Part shown: positions 8,980 to 64,000 of the stretch, one piece after another
How the letters are laid out: every line of letters starts with the position of its first letter
Numbering within the stretch: position 1 is the first letter of the stretch
DNA from: Porpolomopsis calyptriformis
Taxonomy: Eukaryota; Basidiomycota; Agaricomycetes; Agaricales; Hygrophoraceae
Direction of reading: 5' to 3'
NCBI GenBank assembly: GCA_951640195.1
Contig: OX621164.1
Span: forward strand, 3,205,098-3,269,097
DNA length: 64,000 nucleotides
Position numbers and translations under genes: made by a program
The notes under the pieces: model-generated
Database searches by the model: none
What the model was told of the DNA's origin: nothing
Seen by the model: only the letters and a program-made list of their open reading frames with translations

Positions 8980-9788
8980 CCTTCTGGTTCTCTCCCACTT
9001 GCTTATCCAACGCCCTCATCACTGTGATCATCGACATCACCTCTTTGTCTCTTACCCACTTTCATCCTGGCTTCTACCGATAACTCAGACATTGAAGAAC
9101 AATACGAAGACCCTCTCTCAAGATCAACCTTCTCAGCTACCATCCAAGATCAAGAACCCTCCTTTTCCTCTGATCTTGAAGAAACTCTAGCTGCTCCAAC
9201 CCCAACTCCTGCTCCTGCCCCCCTAGGACTGCAAACTTGATCAAGAACAAGAGGACTCTTCTCTTCATCTTCAGCCTTAGCAACAAGACCAGTTCATCAA
9301 TGGACTGCTACCCCACCAGGACGATATGGTTCCCTTTACTCCCAACTTTCCTCTGTGACACCCACACCAACACCAACAGCTCCAACAACTCCCTTACCTA
9401 CAACATCTGCCAACATGTCAGGAACGTCCACCAATGCCCCCACCAACCCCCCTACCATTGATATCACAACCTTGATGGCCACAGTTCACCAACTCGAACA
9501 AACTATCACTCAACAACAACAACTGATCGCCCAGCTCTAACAACAACAACAACCTCCTCAACCCCCTCAGCTGCCCCAACAACCTCCCTTACCTCAACAA
9601 CCCGCTCCTCCCCCCATCAAGATAGCCAAACCTGATGAATACGACGGGTCTGCAGCCAAGTGTCTCAATTTTATCCAAGCTTGTCATCTAGTTGTCATGA
9701 AATTGGCATTCACTCTCTTAAAATTCCTCTCTTTTCTTCATTCTTTTCTTTTCTTTCTTATACCAATTCTTTTGAGAGGAAGGCTGTC

Positions 9789-9794
9789 TTTATT
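9789..9794 (-). terminator. AATAAA poly(A) signal of antisense LTR-A gene (copy 1)
   Basis: AATAAA on the minus strand, about 57 bp after the stop codon. Present at the same place in copies 2 and 3. Confidence 0.5.
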
Positions 9795-9850
9795 GGCAGC
9801 GGAAACTACTTGTACAAAAGGAGGAGTCCATGTCCGACTAGCTAATTATA

Positions 9851-10682
9851 CTAGTCCGTCTTGGCAATCTCCTGCACCATACTATCCCTCAAGAACTCTA
9901 CAAAACTCGACACTACTTGACCATCTATTGCGGCCAACTTATTACCCCAGTAGATTGCCCCATTGGTGTCACCACCGGAGGCCTGCAACTCGGCAGCCTT
10001 CCCTTCAATGAAACTCATCGCTATCTTTCTCGCTTCCTCACCCAACCAATCGTTGGTGGGACTCCATAACAAACTAGGAGGAACTTCTTCCTCCTTGATC
10101 TTGACGTTGACGTTGGTCAACGACGACGACAAATCTTCGACTAAAAAAGACAGGGAATCAGCAACTATGAAGAGAGCGAGAGAGTTAAAGGCTCACCACT
10201 AGACAAAACACTTGTTGGACCAGGGGTCCAAGGATGGAAAGGGGGGCTGGTAGCCAAGTCCTCAGGCTTAGCATCATCAAAGGGGAGGGGATACCCCCAA
10301 CGGTTGGAACTCCAATCAACTCGCTCCTCCAAAGGGAGCTTGGAGGTGGGAGGAGGGGCGTCATCATCCCAAGCTAAAAAGGGAAAGCCTATTATCAATA
10401 AACACAGACTAATAAAGACAAAACAAGATACATACCAAGCGGATCCTCCATCAAGCCACAAACATGCTGGATTGGCCAGCGAACATACGGACACTTTCTG
10501 ACCTTATGCTTGCCACCGCAAGCAAAACAAGAGAAGGAAGACCAGCAGAGGTTGGCGTCGGAAGGGATGCGCTGAAGGTAGTAATGAAACGAATTGCAAT
10601 CGAGACAGACAGGAGCAGTGTGGTGCACCACTCCAGACTGCTTGAAGAATCGAACGTAGTGGCCTTGGTGGGAAGAAGTCAT
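9851..10682 (-). CDS. antisense LTR-A gene, copy 1: zinc-knuckle-like protein, 237 aa
   Basis: I do not recognise this gene. Three exons: 10682-10436, 10373-10197 and 10140-9851, joined by GTATGT...TTTAG and GTGAGC...TTTAG introns, 238 codons with stop. It starts MTSSHQGHYV. Residues 46-64 hold CWSSF...C-x2-C-x3-H-x4-C (C52, C55, H59, C64), close to a retroviral zinc knuckle but one residue shorter. The middle is acidic and Pro-rich (AWDDDAPPP), and the C-terminal 90 residues are predicted mainly helical (WLGEEARKIAMSF; VVSSFVEFLRDSM). It has its own TATA box and AATAAA. Copies 2 and 3 have identical exon structure and no stops, while the flanking gag is broken. A captured host gene or a trans-acting element protein are both possible. 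Confidence 0.75.
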
Positions 10683-10730
10683 GATGATTGACAAGGATTG
10701 AACTAAAGCATAGGGATACAACCCCACACC

Positions 10731-10737
10731 TTTTATA
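10731..10737 (-). promoter_or_regulatory. TATA box of antisense LTR-A gene (copy 1)
   Basis: TATAAAAGG on the minus strand, about 49 bp before the ATG at 10682. Conserved in copies 2 and 3 as CTTTTATATG on the plus strand. Confidence 0.6.
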
Positions 10738-11039
10738 TGCTCAGACACAAAGGGAAGACCAAAAGGAGGTTCCTCAGTCAAAGAAGAGAAACCCAATACG
10801 CCGGACAAGAGATAGAAACAGCGGCGATCTCATGACTAGAAGAATAATAGGAACCAGTCATGAGACAGCACAGCCTGATACTGCAGAAGGCTATGCCCAA
10901 TAGAGTTGAGTCATCAAAACAACACAGCCTTCCGCAGTATGACTAAGAACAATGGCAAACCTTAAACCGGAGGCTGTGAACAATAGAAAATGGGGTGACT
11001 GCGGAAGCTGACTCATAGTGACTCCTAATTTAGAAATAC

Positions 11040-11047
11040 TATATAAA
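11040..11047 (+). promoter_or_regulatory. sense-strand TATA box of LTR A1
   Basis: TATATAAA followed by CCCTGAGGGCGAAGCGG, kept in all four LTR-A copies. Its place 350 bp before the LTR end fits a retroelement promoter at the U3/R border. Confidence 0.5.
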
Positions 11048-12271
11048 CCCTGAGGGCGAAGCGGATCATCACTTCGTCCTCCTGTGAGATTACTTGTAGT
11101 AGCACGAACGCAATCAGAATCATCAGACTTCTTTTCCATCAGAACAAGAAAAGAGAAACACAAAACACAACTACTGAGCCAACCGTTCATGCCCATATTC
11201 CCTAAACTCTCAGCAGAGGCACGCAATGGATTCAACCTGCAGAACAACTTCTTTGTAGAAGTAAAACTTAATTCAGAAGGAATCATCACTCTATATGAAG
11301 ATGTCCCTGTCAGAACCTTCTTCTACATCCTACTAGACTTATTGAGCTCCAAGGCCTGCCTTGTGATTAACGAAAAGACTTGCAACTACAGTTGTGACAC
11401 TAGTCCTTGATGACAGCCAGTGGTCCGACAGACAAAAGATTACTTATGTCTTGTTGTTCATGAAGATCAGTGTTGCCCAGTCATGGGCTCGACAGCAGAC
11501 CCAAGAGTTCAATCGTGTCCAATGGGTTGGAGCCAACTACGAGGACTTTATGGAAGAAATCGAGGAATGCTTCGGAGATGTTGATGCTAAGGCGACAGCA
11601 CAGGTCAAAATACAAAAGGTAACACAAGGATCTTCTACTGTGGACAATTATAATGTACGGTTTGGAGCTCTCACAGAAGAAACCAGATTTAACGATGACG
11701 CACTCAAAACTTTTTACCGGAATGGCCTCGATCCCCGGATCCTCAAAAGGATCTATGCTCTTGATCCCATCCCAGCCACCCTCAACACTCGGAAGCGAAA
11801 AGCTTCCATCTTCAATTGACAACGTCTCGAACTTGCACTTGAGCGTCATGCTGCTCCCCGGAGTAACTACTACACTCCCAGGGAAACCATGGCTTGAACG
11901 ACAACCTGAACTCCCTCCTCTGCTCCTGTCAAACAGGAGACAACTTCCTCTTCATCAATATTGCATGTTCCGAGAGGCAACTGCTATCGCTGCAGAGAAC
12001 CAGGTCATTGGGCGAACAAGTGTCCAAATACCTCTTTCACCCCTTCTTTGTCAGTGCACCCACTGAGTAGTGCCCCTGCCGGACGATGAGGAGGAAGACC
12101 AAACACAGGGCGAGGTTGAGGACGAAGCATATGAGGTGTTGAGACGGAATGAGTCGATGAGATGGTTTCCCCAGCTACTATGGAGGAAACTATCCGAGTG
12201 GTGGACAACTGCGGGATCGATTGCTGGCCGAAAGAGAGAAAAGCTCAGCTCATCAAGGAACTGAAAGAACA

Positions 12272-27944: not shown

Positions 27945-29653
27945 TGTCATGAAATTGGCGTTCACTCTCTTAAAATTCTTCTCTTTTCTTCGTTCTTTTC
28001 CTTTCTTTTCTATGCCTGTTCTCTTTGGAAGGGGGGCTGTCTTTATTGGCAGCAGAAACTACTTGTACAAAAAGAGGAGTCCATGTCCGACTAATAAAAA
28101 ACCTAAACTAGTCCGTCTTGGCAATCTCCTGCACCATACTATCTCTCAAAAACTCTATGAAACTAGAAACTACTTGACCGTCTAAAGCAGCCAACTTATT
28201 ACCCCAGTAGATTGCCCCATTAGTGTCACCACTGGAGGCCTGCAACTCGGCAGCCTTCCCCTCAACGAAACCCACTGCTATCTTTCTCACTTCCTCACCC
28301 AACCAATCATTGGTGGGACTCCATAACAAGCTAGGAGGAACTTCTTCCTCCTCGATCTTGACGCTGACATTGGTCAAAGACGACAAATCTTCCACTAAGA
28401 ATAAAAGAGTCAACAAATCATGAAGAGGGCGAGAGAATTGAGAGCTTACCACTAGAAATAGAACTCATTGGACCAGGGGTCCAAGGACGGAAGGGGGGAC
28501 TGGCAGCCCAGTCGACTGCCTCCTTCTTGACAGGAGGGAGGGAATCAGCCCACTTGTCAGACCCCCAATTAACCTGCTCCTCCAAAGGGAGCTGGGAAGT
28601 AGGGGGAGGGGCGTCATCATCCCAAGCTGAGAAAGGGAAAGCCTATTATCAACAAACACAGACTAATAAAGACAAAACAAAATACTCACCAAGCAGATCC
28701 TCCATCAAGCCGCAAGCATGCTGGATTGGCCAGCGAACGAACGGACACTTCTTAACTTTGTGCTTGCCACCACAAGCAAAGCAGGAAAAGGAAGACCAAC
28801 AGAGGTCGGCGTCGGAGGGGATGCGCTGGAGGAAGTAATGAAACAAATCGCAATCGAGAAAGACAGGAGCAGTGCGGTGCACCACTCCAGACTGCTTGAA
28901 GAATCGAACGTAGTGGCCTTGGTGGGAAGGAGTCATGATGATTGACGAGGATTGAACTGAAGCATAGGGATACAACCCCACACCTTTTATATGCCCAGAC
29001 ACAAAGGGAGGACCAAAAGGAGGTTCCTCAGTTAAAGAAGAGAAACCCGATACACCAGACAAGAGATAGAAACAACGGCGATCTCATGACTAGAAAAACT
29101 ATAGAAACCAGTCATGAGACAACACAGCCTAATGCTGCAGAAGGCTATGCCTAATAGAATTGAGTCATCAAAAGCACACAGCCTTGCGCAGTATGACTAA
29201 GAACAATAGCAAACCTTAAACTGGGGCTGTGAACAATAGAAAATGGGGTGACTGCGGAAGCTGACTTATAGTGACTCCTATTTTAGAAATACTATATAAA
29301 CCCTGAGGGCGAAGCGGATCATCACTTCATCCTCCTGTGAGATTACTTGTAGTAGCACGAACGCAATCAGAATCATCAGACTTCTTTTCCATCAGAATAA
29401 GAAAAGAGAAACACAAAACCATAACTACTGAGCCAACCGTTCATGCCCATATTCCCTAAACTCTCAGCAGAGGCACGCAACAGATTCAACCCGCAGAACA
29501 ACTTCTTTGTAGAAGTAAAACTTAATTCAGAAGGAATCATCACTCTATACGAAGACGTCCCTGTCAGAACTTTCTTCTATATCCTACTAGACTTATTGAG
29601 CTCCAAGGCCTGCCTTGTGATTAACGAAAAGACTTGCAACTACAGTTGTGACA
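27945..29653 (+). mobile_element. solo LTR A2 (1709 bp) carrying an antisense gene
   Basis: TGTCATGA...TTGTGACA with perfect duplication CTTCT. It is inserted in exon 2 of the Harbinger Myb-like gene, whose frame rejoins across the site. Same content and order as A1. Confidence 0.88.
28108..28936 (-). CDS. antisense LTR-A gene, copy 2, 236 aa
   Basis: Exons 28936-28690, 28626-28450 and 28394-28108, lengths 247, 177 and 287 nt; the first two equal copy 1 and the third is one codon shorter. Splice signals are GGTGAGT...CTCAG and GGTAAGC...CTTAG. No stop or frameshift. Differences from copy 3 are single substitutions (for example HRT/HHT, SGDT/GGDT). The CWSSFSCFACGGKHKVKKC stretch is fully kept; the first Cys of copy 1 (CLDC) is Phe here. 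Minus-strand TATAAAAGG and AATAAA are present. Confidence 0.75.
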
Positions 29654-39646: not shown

Positions 39647-39655
39647 CCCTGTTGG

Positions 39656-40805
39656 CACTGTTTGAAATAAAATATCCATCTATCTGCATCTTTTACATAA
39701 TCATTTTTGATACCTCTGTTGTCACACTGTCACGCTGTGACTATTACCTAACTGGTTGAGTCACAGTTATAAATATATTATCTTTGTTGTTTTTACTGTA
39801 ACAACTACACTGTTTAAAATAAAATATCCATCCACTAACAATGTGACAGTGTGACAACAGTGTTACCTAACTGGTTGAGTCATGGTCACAAATATGTTAT
39901 TATTTTCACTGTAACAACTGCACTGTTTGAAATAAAATATCTATCTTATAAAGTTTGACAATGTGACAGGGTGACAATAGAGGTATCATTTGTTTACTGT
40001 TGTTATACTGTCACATTGTTTAATAGTCACATTGTGACAGCGTGACAGGTTGAGTCATAGTCACAAATATAATATCTTTGTTGTTTTTACTGTAATAACT
40101 GCACTATTTCAAATTAAATATCTATCCACTATTACATTGTTAAAGTTTACAATAGATAGATATTTCATTTCAAACAGTGCAGTTGTTACAGTGAAAATAA
40201 CAAAGATAACATATTTGTGACTGTGACTCAAACAGTTAGGTACCAGTCACATTGTGACAGTGTGACAACAGGGGCATCAAAATTAATAGATGTGGATAGA
40301 TAGATATTTCATTTCAAACAGTGCCAATAGGGGTATTAAAAATAATAGTGAAGAGATAATACCCCTGTTATCATGCTGTCACAATGTAACATATTTGTGA
40401 CTATGACTCAACCTGTCACGCTGTCACAATGTGACTATTAAACAATGTGACAGTATAACAACAGTAAACAAATGATACCTCTATTGTCACCCTGTCACAT
40501 TGTCAAACTTTATAAGATAGATATTTTATTTCAAACAGTGCAGTTGTTACAGTGAAAATAATAACATATTTGTGACCATGACTCAACCAGTTAGGTAACA
40601 CTGTTGTCACACTGTCACATTGTTAGTGGATGGATATTTTATTTTAAACAGTGTAGTTGTTACAGTAAAAACAACAAAGATAATATATTTATAACTGTGA
40701 CTCAACCAGTTAGGTAATAGTCACAGCGTGACAGTGTGACAACAGAGGTATCAAAAATGATTATGTAAAAGATGCAGATAGATGGATATTTTATTTCAAA
40801 TAGTG
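39656..40805. repeat. 1.15-kb palindrome (415-bp arms, about 320-bp centre)
   Basis: 39656-40070 is nearly the exact reverse complement of 40391-40805 (for example GGTATCATTTGTTTACTG at 39982 pairs with 40480). Each arm holds repeated modules: CACTGTTTGAAATAAAATAT, GTCACACTGTCACGC-like blocks and CTAACTGGTTGAGTCA. The centre has more of the same modules. No protein is coded. It could be a fold-back transposon or a nested MITE cluster; its transcript would form a long hairpin. Confidence 0.8.
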
Positions 40806-41400
40806 CTATTATTACAGTGAAAATAACAAAGACAATATAAGGGGGAGCCAGAGCTAATACTATTGCAACAGATAGAGGTATTTTTCTTAGACATAATAGA
40901 TCTAATTGTTACAATAAGTCTCTTTTTTGATTATTATTTCCTTTCTGTGCGCCAATTCTCTTTACTATCATTTTTGATGCTACAATTGTTATGCTGTCAC
41001 AATGTGACCATTACCTGACTGGTTAAGTCACAGTTACAAGTGTGACATTTGTCACTCTTTCTTATCTTTCCCATCTTATCTTTTACACTTAATTATTACT
41101 TATACAATTGTTCTATGGATTGATTATATAATCACATATTCGGACTTGGCTAGGGTGTTAGGTCTGAAGTTTTGGAGCTGAATTTGGAGATTGGAGTTAG
41201 ATAAATGATGGGACTTAGTTAATATTGGCTGACTTTCCATAAGGAATAAAATATGTTTATTGTCAAATCTCCAATTTGACAGCTAAGTGGGACCCCTACA
41301 TAAAATATTTTATTCAAGATGTGTTCCCATAGCATATTACACTGTGTAACAACATGTAATAAATCATAACAAAGTGTCACATAACGACTTATGGCTGACT
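40806..41400. other. AT-rich, includes reversed LTR E fragment (41157-41225)
   Basis: No gene seen. 41157-41225 starts TGTTAGGTCTGAAG and is the reverse complement of the last ~70 bp of LTR E. The rest is unassigned. Confidence 0.45.
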
Positions 41401-56575: not shown

Positions 56576-58278
56576 TGTCATGAAATTGGCGTTCACTCTC
56601 TTAAAATTCCTCTCTTTTCTTCGTTCTTTTCTTTTCTTTCTTATACCAATTCTTTTGGAAGGAAGGCTGTCTTTATTGGCAGTGGAAACTACTTGTATGA
56701 AAGGAGGAATCCATCTCCGACTAGCTAATTATACTAGTCCATCTTGGCAATCTCCTGCACCATACTATCTCTCAAGAACTCTATGAAACTAGAAACTACT
56801 TGACCATCTAAAGCGGCCAACTTATTACCCCAGTAGATTGCCCCATTAGTGTCACCACCGGAGGCCTGCAACTCAGCAGCCTTCCCCTCAACGAAACTCA
56901 CTGCTATCTTTCTCGCTTCCTCACCCAACCAATCGTTGGTGGGACTCCATAACAAACTAGGAGGAACTTCTTCCTCCTCGATCTTGACGCTGACATTGGT
57001 CAACGACGACAAATCTTCCACTAAGAATAAAGAGTCAACAAATCATGAAGAGGGCGAGAGAATTGAGAGCTTACCACTAGAAATAGAACTCATCGGACCA
57101 GGGGTCCAAGGACGGAAGGGGGGACTGGCAGCCCAGTCGACTGCCTCCTTCTTGACAGGAGGGAGAGAATCAGCCCACTTGTCAGACCCCCAATTAATCT
57201 GCTCCTCCAAAGGGAGCTGGGAAGTAGGGGGAGGGGCGTCATCATCCCAAGCTAAGAAAGGGAAAGCCTATTATCAACAAACACAGACTAATAAAGACAA
57301 AACAAAATACTCACCAAGCGGATCCTCCATCAAGCCGCAAGCATGCTGGATTAGCCAGCGAACGAACAGACACTTCTTGACTTTGTGCTTGCCACCGCAA
57401 GCAAAGCAGGAAAAGGAAGACCAACAGAGGTCGGCGTTGGAGGGGATGCGCTGGAGGTAGTAATGAAATGAATCACAATCAAGAAAGACAGGAGCAGTGT
57501 GGTGCACCACTCCAGACTGCTTGAAGAATCGAACGTAGTGGCCTTGGTGGGAAGGAGTCATGATGATTGACGAGGATTGAACTGAAGCATAGGGATACAA
57601 CCCCACACCTTTTATATGCCCAGACACAAAGGGAGGACCAAAAGGAGGTTCCTCAGTCAAAGAAGAGAAACCCGATACGCCGGACAAGAGATAGAAACAA
57701 CGGCAATCTCATGACTAGAAGAACTATAGAAACTAGTCATGAGACAACACAGCCTAATACTGCGGAAGGCTATGCCTAATAGAATTGAGTCATCAGAAGC
57801 ACACAGCCTTGCGCAGTATGACTAAGAACAATAGCAAACCTTAAACTGGGGGCTGTGAACAATAGAAAATGGGGTGACTGCGGAAGCTGACTCATAGTGA
57901 CTCCTATTTTAGAAATACTATATAAACCCTGAGGGCGAAGCGGATCATCACTTCGTCCTCCTGTGAGATTACTTGTAGTAGCACGAACGCAATCAGAGTC
58001 ATCAGACTTCTTTTCCATCAGAACAAGAAAAGAGAAACACAAAACACAACTACTGAGCCAACCGTTCATGCCCATATTCCCTAAACTCTCAGCAGAGGCA
58101 CACAACGGATTCAACCCGCAGAACAACTTCTTTGTAGAAGTAAAACTTAATTCAGAAGGAATCATCACTCTATACGAAGACATCCCTGTCAGAACCTTCT
58201 TCTACATCCTACTAGACTTATTGAGCTCCAAGGCCTGCCTTGTGATTAACGAAAAGACTTGCAACTACAGTTGTGACA
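56576..58278 (+). mobile_element. solo LTR A3 (1703 bp) carrying an antisense gene
   Basis: TGTCATGA...TTGTGACA with perfect duplication AACAT, inserted in the RT of C2. Same content as A1 and A2. Confidence 0.88.
56734..57561 (-). CDS. antisense LTR-A gene, copy 3, 236 aa
   Basis: Exons 57561-57315, 57251-57075 and 57020-56734, lengths 247, 177 and 287 nt, same phases as copies 1 and 2. Open throughout. Cys/His residues of the CWSSFSCFACGGKHKVKKC stretch are kept. Minus-strand TATAAAAGG lies about 49 bp before the ATG (near 57610) and AATAAA after the stop (near 56672). It faces the same way as the C2 host, so it is not explained by host transcription alone. Confidence 0.75.
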
Positions 58279-62960: not shown

Positions 62961-63682
62961 ATGATCGTGAGTCAGAGGGAAGGTGAAGGTGAAGGTTGAA
63001 GTGGGCTAGGATATAGGTAAGGTGGCAGTCAATTAAAAGAGCAGTAGAAAATGATTGGATGCAGTTAGTTGGGAGGAAGGGGTGAACATCCTTCGGATTT
63101 TATATGTAGGGGTCCAGGGGGGGGATGGTCTGGATGGAACACAAGACTTAGGTTCTACCCATGAGAAATGCAAAAAAACTTACAAAAGGATAGCAGGATT
63201 GTGTTAAAAACAAAAAGACTTGAATTCCATGCAGATACATCTTGATGGTGGGACAGCGATTGGGGGGTGAAAACAATAGAGAATCTAGCGATTGGCTGCA
63301 TGGTGAGTGGGCCAAGCCAATGCTATGAGGATGGGAGGGAGCCAGGGCATGAATGTGACCTATCTTGAGGCCAAGGGGGGACTCGGACCTTTGACAGAGA
63401 AGTAGGGGACACAGAGATGTAGTCATGAGTATGAGTTGACTCAGCATGATTACAAAGTGACATTACCAAATTTAGGGAAATTCATGTCTGATACATCTAT
63501 TCAAGGCTATTTGGGGGGGGGGATGTCTTACAGATTAAGGTTTATAAACAGTCCAGTTTTGGGAGTATGTTAGATTGAGGACCCCAAATCTCATCGGCTT
63601 CTCGGCTTCCTTCCATTTCAGACTTTTATTGGGTGAGTTTATTCTATTCTATGTTGAAAAACTGTACGGGAAGTCACCCACT
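62961..63682. other. unassigned DNA beside LTR A4
   Basis: No gene recognised. A G-run (GGGGGGGGGG near 63517) lies before ATGTCTTACAGATTAAGG, loosely like the reversed end at 26755, so the outer end of Harbinger unit 2 may lie here. Confidence 0.35.
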
Positions 63683-64000
63683 AAAAGGAGCTTCCTCAGT
63701 TGAAGAAGAGAAACCCAATATGCTGGACAAGAAATAGAAACAATGGTAATCTCATAACTAGAAAGAACAATAAGAACAAGTTATGAGACAACACAGCCCT
63801 GTGCTGTGGAAGGCTATGCCTAATAGAGTTAAGTCATCAGAAGTACACAGCCTTCCACAGTATAACTAGGAACAATAGCAAACCTTAAACTGGAAGCTGT
63901 GAACAATAGACTAGGGGGTGACTGTAGAGGATGACTTATAATGACTCCTATTTTAGAAATACTATATAAACCCTGAGGGCAAAGCAGATTATTACTTTGT
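63683..64000 (+). mobile_element. LTR A4, truncated copy without the antisense gene, cut by window end
   Basis: Matches A1 from about 10761 onwards (AAAAGGAG...TATATAAACCCTGAGGGC) with about 10 percent differences. The part that would hold the antisense gene and its TATA box is absent; upstream sequence is unrelated. Confidence 0.75.

What the first reader, a model, noticed from the sequence alone, without database searches (positions are those of the whole stretch)
9851..10682. Spliced antisense gene inside a long LTR, open in all three copies
Seen: LTR A copies at 9693, 27945 and 56576 each hold, on the strand opposite to the LTR, a three-exon gene with identical exon sizes (247, 177, 287-290 nt), canonical introns, TATAAAAGG about 49 bp upstream and AATAAA after the stop. 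None of the three has a stop or frameshift over ~237 codons, while the elements they sit in are riddled with stops. Known: LTRs very rarely contain full protein genes (MMTV sag is one). Inferred: an accessory or captured gene spread with the LTR; possibly a previously undescribed mobile-element system.
Basis: partly seen in the sequence, partly recalled or inferred. Interest (0 to 1): 0.88.

Follow-up and report, generated by a model that had tools for sequence, protein, structure and literature searches.

The report
Antisense gene inside a retrotransposon LTR
A fungal jumping gene carries, inside its repeated ends and on the opposite strand, a small spliced gene for an unknown, probably zinc-binding protein that selection has kept intact in the copies that spread, so that many leftover solo ends still hold a complete little gene.

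Summary
The three window repeats are solo LTRs (about 1.7 kb, 5-bp target duplications) of a chromodomain Ty3/gypsy element; paired-LTR elements exist elsewhere in the genome. U3 carries, antisense, its own TATA box, three exons (247/177/287-290 nt), two short GT-AG introns and mostly AATAAA. The 236-237-aa protein has no detected relative.

Of 131 full-length genomic copies, 75 are intact and 130 keep all four splice dinucleotides; among 50 LTRs found by U5 alone, 47 hold the full-length gene, 26 of them intact. dN/dS is 0.12-0.18 for pairs over 3% apart, above 1 in shifted frames. Of 57 premature-stop events 55 lie on single tips, none in clades of four or more. In seven LTR pairs post-insertion change shows no constraint. 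So the gene is selected while the element spreads, then drifts: an element accessory gene.

Function is inferred: a Cys/His-rich protein, probably regulating its own LTR or helping replication. Known antisense accessory genes (Grande, Retand, Boty brtn, HBZ) lie outside the LTR; a whole spliced gene inside U3 is a new variant. No expression data.

The parts
9693..11399 (+). LTR A copy 1, solo LTR (1707 bp), TSD CTAGT
27945..29653 (+). LTR A copy 2, solo LTR, TSD CTTCT
56576..58278 (+). LTR A copy 3, solo LTR, TSD AACAT
10436..10682 (-). copy 1 exon 1 (ATG at 10682): Cys/His-rich module, candidate ligands C29 C46 C52 C55 H59 C64 H73 C75
10374..10435 (-). copy 1 intron 1 (62 nt)
10197..10373 (-). 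copy 1 exon 2: fast-evolving linker (dN/dS 0.36)
10141..10196 (-). copy 1 intron 2 (56 nt)
9851..10140 (-). copy 1 exon 3 with stop: acidic (pI 4.4), predicted helical at low confidence, dN/dS 0.10
28690..28936 (-). copy 2 exon 1
28450..28626 (-). copy 2 exon 2
28108..28394 (-). copy 2 exon 3
57315..57561 (-). copy 3 exon 1
57075..57251 (-). copy 3 exon 2
56734..57020 (-). copy 3 exon 3
10729..10740 (-). TATA box of the antisense gene (identical 12-mer in 51 of 53 LTRs)
9789..9794 (-). AATAAA downstream of the antisense stop (kept in 37 of 53 LTRs, AACAAA in 16)
11039..11049 (+). TATA box of the sense LTR promoter (identical 11-mer in 51 of 53)
11071..11080 (+). probable start of R: complementary over 10 nt to the sequence just after the 5' LTR of L010 (self-primed PBS)
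10828..10865 (+). conserved inverted repeat 1 between the two promoters (arms 10828-10837 / 10856-10865)
10877..10941 (+). conserved inverted repeat 2 with one strongly covarying pair (arms 10877-10892 / 10926-10941)
10907..10913 (+). TGAGTCA site (Gcn4/AP-1-like by recall), unchanged in 52 of 53 LTRs
11009..11015 (+). TGACTCA site, unchanged in 47 of 53 LTRs
11189..11399 (+). start (70 codons) of a sense ORF that begins in R-U5 and continues past the LTR end in L009 and L010

Best explanation
The LTR of a self-primed chromodomain Ty3/gypsy element carries a two-way transcription unit. SHOWN from sequence: sense promoter and R-U5 on one side; on the other, within U3 and antisense, a complete intron-containing gene with its own TATA box. 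Genomic RNA traverses U3 of the 3' LTR in sense, so (established retroelement biology) the antisense introns are not spliced out and the gene is copied into both LTRs at each cycle; recombination then leaves it in solo LTRs. SHOWN: the protein is selected in lineages that transpose, and change after insertion shows no constraint. INFERRED: it is a Cys/His-rich, probably zinc-binding protein that helps its own element spread, most likely by binding the LTR's divergent promoter region or nucleic acid and controlling LTR transcription or silencing. I hold the gene-level claim at about 0.95 and the regulator step at about 0.4; the confidence given is for the whole statement.
For: Selection: in-frame dN/dS 0.18, 0.12 and 0.16 for pairs at 3-6%, 6-9% and >9% divergence against 1.1-1.6 in shifted frames; exons 0.11/0.36/0.10. 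55 of 57 premature-stop events on single tips, 2 shared (codon 64 in two copies, codon 235 in three), none in clades of four or more; Fisher 2.5e-10 against synonymous events (131 copies). Splice dinucleotides kept in 130 of 131. No constraint after insertion: seven LTR pairs give S 47, N 77, stop 13 against a CpG-aware neutral 46/85/5. Element: L009 and L010 have PBS and PPT next to gene-bearing LTRs, gag domains shown in L009 and protease to chromodomain in L010. Regulator idea: exon 1 is basic (pI 8.8) and its eight candidate Cys/His ligands took 1 internal change where 4.6 would be expected from exon 1 as a whole; two conserved inverted repeats lie between the promoters.
Against: No transcript, splicing or protein data. 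No fold or family: Pfam none, protein searches none, AlphaFold low confidence (pLDDT 47 and 55). The Cys/His pattern CX2CX3HX4C is one residue shorter than the zinc knuckle as I recall it and matched no model. A strict CTRAY branch-site motif is present in intron 2 of only 56 of 118 copies (a looser motif is in intron 1 of 118 of 118). A freely diffusible regulator should be supplied in trans by other copies, yet no lineage with an early-broken gene left more than two sampled copies; that fits a cis-limited role, or expression of few copies at a time, better. The inverted repeats could be structures of the genomic RNA rather than binding sites.
Confidence: 0.5

Rival explanations
1. Same accessory gene, but the protein acts in the replication cycle (RNA packaging, particle assembly, nuclear import) rather than on the LTR promoter.
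For: No sampled clade of four or more copies shares a premature stop although intact copies are many in the same genome, as expected of a cis-preferring replication factor; constraint is of the same order as that of pol (ratio 0.22 between two elements).
Against: Its own promoter on the other strand, rather than the gag-pol RNA, suggests separate control; no similarity of exon 1 to the Gag zinc-knuckle ORF of L009.
Confidence: 0.3
2. A host gene, or a gene domesticated by the host, that happens to be spread by the LTR.
For: It has introns, and many solo copies are open.
Against: After insertion the gene shows no constraint (S 47, N 77, stop 13 against 46/85/5), and broken copies are scattered over the tree. 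Whether a copy exists outside any LTR was not tested systematically: each genome search scores only the best 40 or 150 hits.
Confidence: 0.07
3. The antisense transcript itself (dsRNA or interference) is the functional product and the ORF is incidental.
For: Antisense RNA of retroelements is proposed to regulate in this way (PMC7264820, passages read).
Against: Constraint follows the spliced reading frame; shifted frames do not show it.
Confidence: 0.06
4. The 1.7-kb unit is an independent small transposon, not an LTR.
For: Most examined copies are solitary with 5-bp duplications (40 of 53, two of these with 4 of 5 bases).
Against: Seven pairs of copies lie 7.0-7.1 kb apart in the same orientation (places); the two read through flank a gag-pol body with a self-primed PBS and a purine-rich tract.
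Confidence: 0.02
5. Chance open frames or a gene-model artefact.
For: Three copies alone could be open by chance if recent.
Against: 131 copies, frame controls, splice-site conservation and stop mapping.
Confidence: 0.02

Closest known systems
Antisense additional ORFs of plant gypsy elements (aORF-3R: maize Grande gene23, rice RIRE2, Retand TRP28, PvRetro13)
   Same: Extra gene antisense to gag-pol, in most copies of a family, own promoter in Grande, suspected regulatory or DNA-binding role (PMC7264820: section 5 and passages; PMC11963269: passages).
   Different: Those lie between pol and the 3' LTR, one region per element; here the whole gene with two introns is inside U3, so two per element and one in a solo LTR. 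No TRP28 or other Pfam match.
Boty/BcGypsy1 brtn (Botrytis cinerea, Sclerotinia sclerotiorum)
   Same: Antisense additional gene of a fungal element (Zhao et al. 2011 not read; seen only as cited in PMC7264820 and PMC8365987).
   Different: Described there as an aORF-3R, between pol and the 3' LTR; protein sequence not compared here.
HTLV-1 HBZ and HIV-1 asp
   Same: Antisense gene driven by a promoter of the 3' LTR (asp: U3); HBZ is spliced and encodes a bZIP factor (PMC10186651, passages read).
   Different: By recall most of their coding sequence lies outside the LTR, so a solo LTR would not carry the whole gene; no sequence relation was tested.
MMTV sag
   Different: Sense strand, superantigen of a mammalian virus (recalled).
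VANC proteins of Arabidopsis VANDAL elements
   Same: Possible analogy: element-encoded protein that binds the element's own noncoding DNA and lifts silencing (PMC10398659, abstract and outline seen).
   Different: DNA transposon (recalled), other protein; binding and anti-silencing untested here.

Membership tests
Ty3/gypsy chromodomain LTR retrotransposon (Tf1/sushi-like) | gag CCHC, protease, RT, RNase H, integrase, chromodomain in gypsy order | tested here: met
   Retrotrans_gag and zf-CCHC (L009); RVP_2, RVT_1, RT_RNaseH, Integrase_H2C2, SH3_Tf2-1, Chromo (L010); rve just below its cut-off
Ty3/gypsy chromodomain LTR retrotransposon (Tf1/sushi-like) | TG..CA LTR ends and 5-bp target duplication | tested here: met
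   38 of 53 solo with perfect TSD, 2 with 4 of 5, 6 LTRs of full elements, 7 unclear
Ty3/gypsy chromodomain LTR retrotransposon (Tf1/sushi-like) | self-priming: PBS complementary to the start of the transcript | tested here: met
   10-nt complementarity between the sequence after the 5' LTR of L010 and LTR position 1379; the start site itself is inferred from the TATA box
Antisense aORF-3R | ORF antisense to gag-pol, present in most copies | tested here: met
   full-length gene in 47 of 50 LTRs found by U5
Antisense aORF-3R | located between pol and the 3' LTR | tested here: not met
   it is inside the LTR
Antisense aORF-3R | sequence relation to a known aORF protein (e.g. TRP28, PF04195 as named in PMC11963269) | tested here: not met
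   no Pfam family at E <= 10; brtn and gene23 not compared directly
VANC-like anti-silencing factor | binds the element's own DNA and removes silencing marks | not testable with these tools
   would need binding and methylation assays
CCHC zinc knuckle (Pfam zf-CCHC) | model match | tested here: not met
   spacing is CX2CX3HX4C

The most novel reading that the evidence does not exclude
The LTR is a self-contained bidirectional regulatory cassette: LTRs, solo ones included, encode a DNA-binding factor that acts on the inverted repeats of its own divergent promoter and counters host silencing (the copies show heavy CpG decay), so a population of intact solo LTRs would form a genome-wide self-encoded control network; the lack of broken descendants would mean that this control is cis-restricted or that few copies are ever expressed.
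Probability: 0.2. Interest if true: 0.85.

Novelty: new variant of a known kind. Interest (0 to 1): 0.66.

Why it matters
LTRs are normally treated as regulatory DNA and solo LTRs as relics. Here both strands of the LTR code for protein: a complete intron-bearing antisense gene in U3, and the start of a sense ORF in R-U5. Many solo LTRs are therefore complete genes, which matters for genome annotation (they may be taken for host genes), for how elements regulate or defend themselves, and for the open question of what antisense accessory genes of LTR elements do: with many natural intact and broken copies in one small genome, this family makes that question testable.

Tried and rejected
Homology: Pfam on two spliced products, PDB by sequence (best E 0.37; profile of exon 1, best E 0.83), three searches of 5.8 billion proteins (none at E <= 10). 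I do not know how much fungal sequence that collection holds, so the taxonomic range is untested. AlphaFold of exons 1 and 3 separately was too uncertain for fold searches, which I did not run. Origin of exon 1 from the element's Gag zinc knuckle: no alignment. The LTR piece at the window end (63680-64000, continuing in L119) holds only the last 640 bp of LTR A, without the gene. tblastn of the product on the window with the three LTRs masked gave only noise (best E 1.0). Species: genome size and contig number resemble Heterobasidion irregulare (15 scaffolds, 33.6 Mb in PMC5870257, passage read); not proven and not used. An earlier count said about 29 of 150 exon-1 hits carry a stop; recounting one search gives 24 of 150. 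One search prints 53 of 53 LTRs without a stop in the sense ORF, but two of those LTRs (second LTR of L009, L055) are cut before it, so it is 51 of 51. Literature: ten searches; no title or abstract opening listed there describes a spliced gene inside an LTR of a retrotransposon. PMC1654176 (title and abstract opening only) claims an antisense gene in HIV-1 LTR DNA. The library lacks most subscription journals.

Limits of the counts: copies whose match did not run from gene base 100 or lower to base 780 or higher (of 832) were left out of the 131 (L080, L083, L124, L141, L142, and six extra pieces within L005, L045 (two), L048, L051, L055). The sixty copies come from the upper part of a list ranked by exon-1 similarity, which favours intact copies; the U5 sample avoids this. 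Its 50 LTRs are the union of two lists of 40 that I matched to gene places by hand; each list is itself the best 40 of 261 candidates. Independence of stop events rests on a FastTree topology used without support values.

Full report
WHAT IS THERE. The three repeats are solo LTRs with perfect 5-bp target duplications. The LTR is 1707 bp in copy 1, begins TGTCA and ends TGACA. Elsewhere in the 33.5-Mb genome seven pairs of copies lie 7.0-7.1 kb apart in the same orientation (places). Two were read through: their bodies encode gag with a CCHC knuckle (L009) and protease, RT, RNase H, integrase, an SH3 domain of the Tf2-1 type and a chromodomain (L010). The sequence after the 5' LTR of L010 is complementary over 10 nt to LTR position 1379, about 30 bp downstream of the sense TATA box: the self-primed arrangement of Tf1/sushi elements (established knowledge). 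So U3 is about 1.38 kb and the antisense gene lies wholly inside it. Of 53 LTRs with flanks, 40 are solo (two with 4 of 5 TSD bases), 3 are 5' LTRs, 3 are 3' LTRs and 7 are unclear.

THE GENE. Minus strand of copy 1: exons 10436-10682, 10197-10373, 9851-10140; introns of 62 and 56 nt; 237 aa. Unspliced, none of the six frames is open across the region; the longest open stretch is 118 codons. The four splice dinucleotides were all present in 117 of 118 copies and in 130 of 131 of the final set. Exon lengths were 247/177/290 in 91 and 247/177/287 in 13 of the first 109 copies. A loose branch-site motif (YTRAY) is in intron 1 of 118 of 118 copies; the stricter CTRAY in intron 2 of only 56 of 118.

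IS IT A PROTEIN GENE UNDER SELECTION? Four checks. (a) Polymorphism by frame in 109 copies: among alleles carried by at least 10 copies, 55 nonsynonymous, 100 synonymous, 0 stops, 0.20 of the ratio expected from the mutation spectrum; the two shifted frames gave 1.80 and 1.65. Singletons gave 0.52 (shifted 1.04, 1.65). Alleles in 2-3 copies gave 0.32 (shifted 0.88, 1.31) but 11 stops. Alleles in 4-9 copies gave 0.58 with four stop alleles against 0.60 and 0.82 in shifted frames, so that class does not discriminate. On the tree, stops seen in four or more copies (codons 11, 167, 231) map as repeated single-tip changes, each a C-to-T or G-to-A transition. (b) Pairwise dN/dS over 2,500 random pairs of 118 copies (6,903 possible): 0.34 below 3% divergence, 0.18 at 3-6%, 0.12 at 6-9%, 0.16 above 9%; shifted frames 0.73-1.07 below 3% and 1.10-1.63 above. 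By exon, on 1,500 pairs: 0.11, 0.36, 0.10. (c) On a tree of 131 copies, tip events are 815 S, 765 N, 55 stop; events in clades of 2-3 are 370, 149, 2; in clades of four or more 200, 70, 0. Stops against synonymous, tips against internal: p = 2.5e-10 (with 118 copies 2.0e-8). One of the two shared stops, at codon 235, removes only the last three residues. (d) Candidate metal ligands: C29, C55 and C75 are invariant in 118 copies; C46, C52, H59, C64 and H73 change to another residue in 1-3 copies each, 7 tip events and 1 internal.

WHO BENEFITS? The two LTRs of one element are identical at insertion, so differences between them arise afterwards (gene conversion aside). In seven pairs (L009 and L010 read through; five paired by spacing and orientation, two of these also with a PBS or PPT next to one member) I counted 47 synonymous, 77 nonsynonymous and 13 stop differences; a neutral model that treats CpG transitions, other transitions and transversions separately expects 46, 85 and 5. 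The plain ratio without the CpG model is 0.50, so the conclusion depends on that model; the excess of stops points the same way, to no constraint after insertion. 70 of these 137 differences are CpG transitions, although CpG transitions are only 56 of the 2,133 possible changes, as expected of methylated copies. The introns differ at only 4 of 595 inner positions in these pairs; they contain a single CpG in copy 1. Selection therefore acts through transposition, not through the host.

SAMPLE NOT CHOSEN BY THE GENE. Queries with the U5 part only (best 40 of 261 candidates each) gave 50 distinct LTRs. 47 hold the full-length gene, 26 of those intact; splice sites are intact in 47 of 47. Of the other three, one has the gene interrupted by about 370 bp of other sequence (L141), one keeps only 49 bp (L142), and one is truncated (C7:545477, seen, not part). 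In one search, 24 of 150 exon-1 matches carry a stop.

YARDSTICK. Protease-polymerase of the only two full-length elements read, L009 and L010: ratio 0.22 at 96.7% identity; 7 stop codons in L009 and 2 in L010, the latter including the natural end of its frame. This mixes change before and after insertion, so it is only a rough comparison, but the antisense gene is constrained to a similar degree.

SURROUNDINGS. About 300 bp separate the two TATA boxes, each unchanged in 51 of 53 LTRs. Between them lie two TGASTCA sites (52 and 47 of 53), resembling Gcn4/AP-1 sites by recall, and two inverted repeats. The folded strand has z = -5.0. On 49 distinct rows one pair of repeat 2 is AU in 25, UA in 14 and GU in 9; cells paired and the covariation score exceed all 500 shuffles and the slid controls, but the number of pairs with double changes and of pair types does not exceed the shuffles, so the covariation rests mainly on one pair and few events. 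These may be paired binding sites or hairpins of the genomic RNA. R-U5 also codes: a sense ORF starts at 11189; its 70 LTR codons are stop-free in the 51 LTRs that include them and vary mostly at third positions (alleles in four or more copies 10 N, 18 S, no stop). In L009 and L010 the frame continues past the LTR end and PBS, but each has a stop in the internal part that the other lacks, so its full extent is not settled.

MECHANISM. Because U3 of the 3' LTR is part of the sense genomic RNA, an antisense gene there is copied without splicing, retains its introns, and is duplicated into both LTRs (established retroelement biology). What the protein does is inferred. The basic Cys/His-rich first exon, the fast linker and the acidic, possibly helical C-terminal part look like a small nucleic-acid-binding regulator; its own divergent promoter makes the LTR the obvious target. 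The strongest argument for a different, replication-linked role is that no sampled lineage with an early-broken gene multiplied beyond two copies although intact copies abound.

WHAT IS KNOWN. Antisense extra ORFs of LTR elements are established, in plants and in fungal Boty, between pol and the 3' LTR, and reviewers suspect regulatory roles (PMC7264820 section 5 and passages; PMC11963269 passages). Retroviral antisense genes use 3' LTR promoters (PMC10186651 passages). I found no description of a complete spliced antisense gene inside the LTR of a retrotransposon in the listings. I file it as a new variant of a known kind.

Noticed in passing
window 11189-11399; L010 from about 1741; L009 (minus strand): A sense ORF begins inside R-U5 of the LTR and runs over the LTR end and PBS; its LTR part is stop-free in the 51 LTRs that include it and varies mostly at third positions. 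No Pfam match to 91 residues of it. Full extent unsettled.
   Followed up: partly
window 10828-10865 and 10877-10941: Two conserved inverted repeats between the divergent promoters; one pair covaries (AU/UA/GU).
   Followed up: partly
L009, L010 and five further LTR pairs: About half of post-insertion differences in the gene are CpG transitions (70 of 137), suggesting methylated, silenced copies.
   Followed up: partly
window 63680-64000, continuing in L119 to about 1820: Old LTR fragment holding only the last 640 bp of LTR A (84% identity), without the gene.
   Followed up: yes
window 39655-40070 and 40391-40806: An inverted repeat with 416-bp arms listed as 100% complementary and 320 bp between them; not examined.
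   Followed up: no
L141 (C3:936000-937740): One gene copy is interrupted by about 370 bp of other sequence.
   Followed up: no
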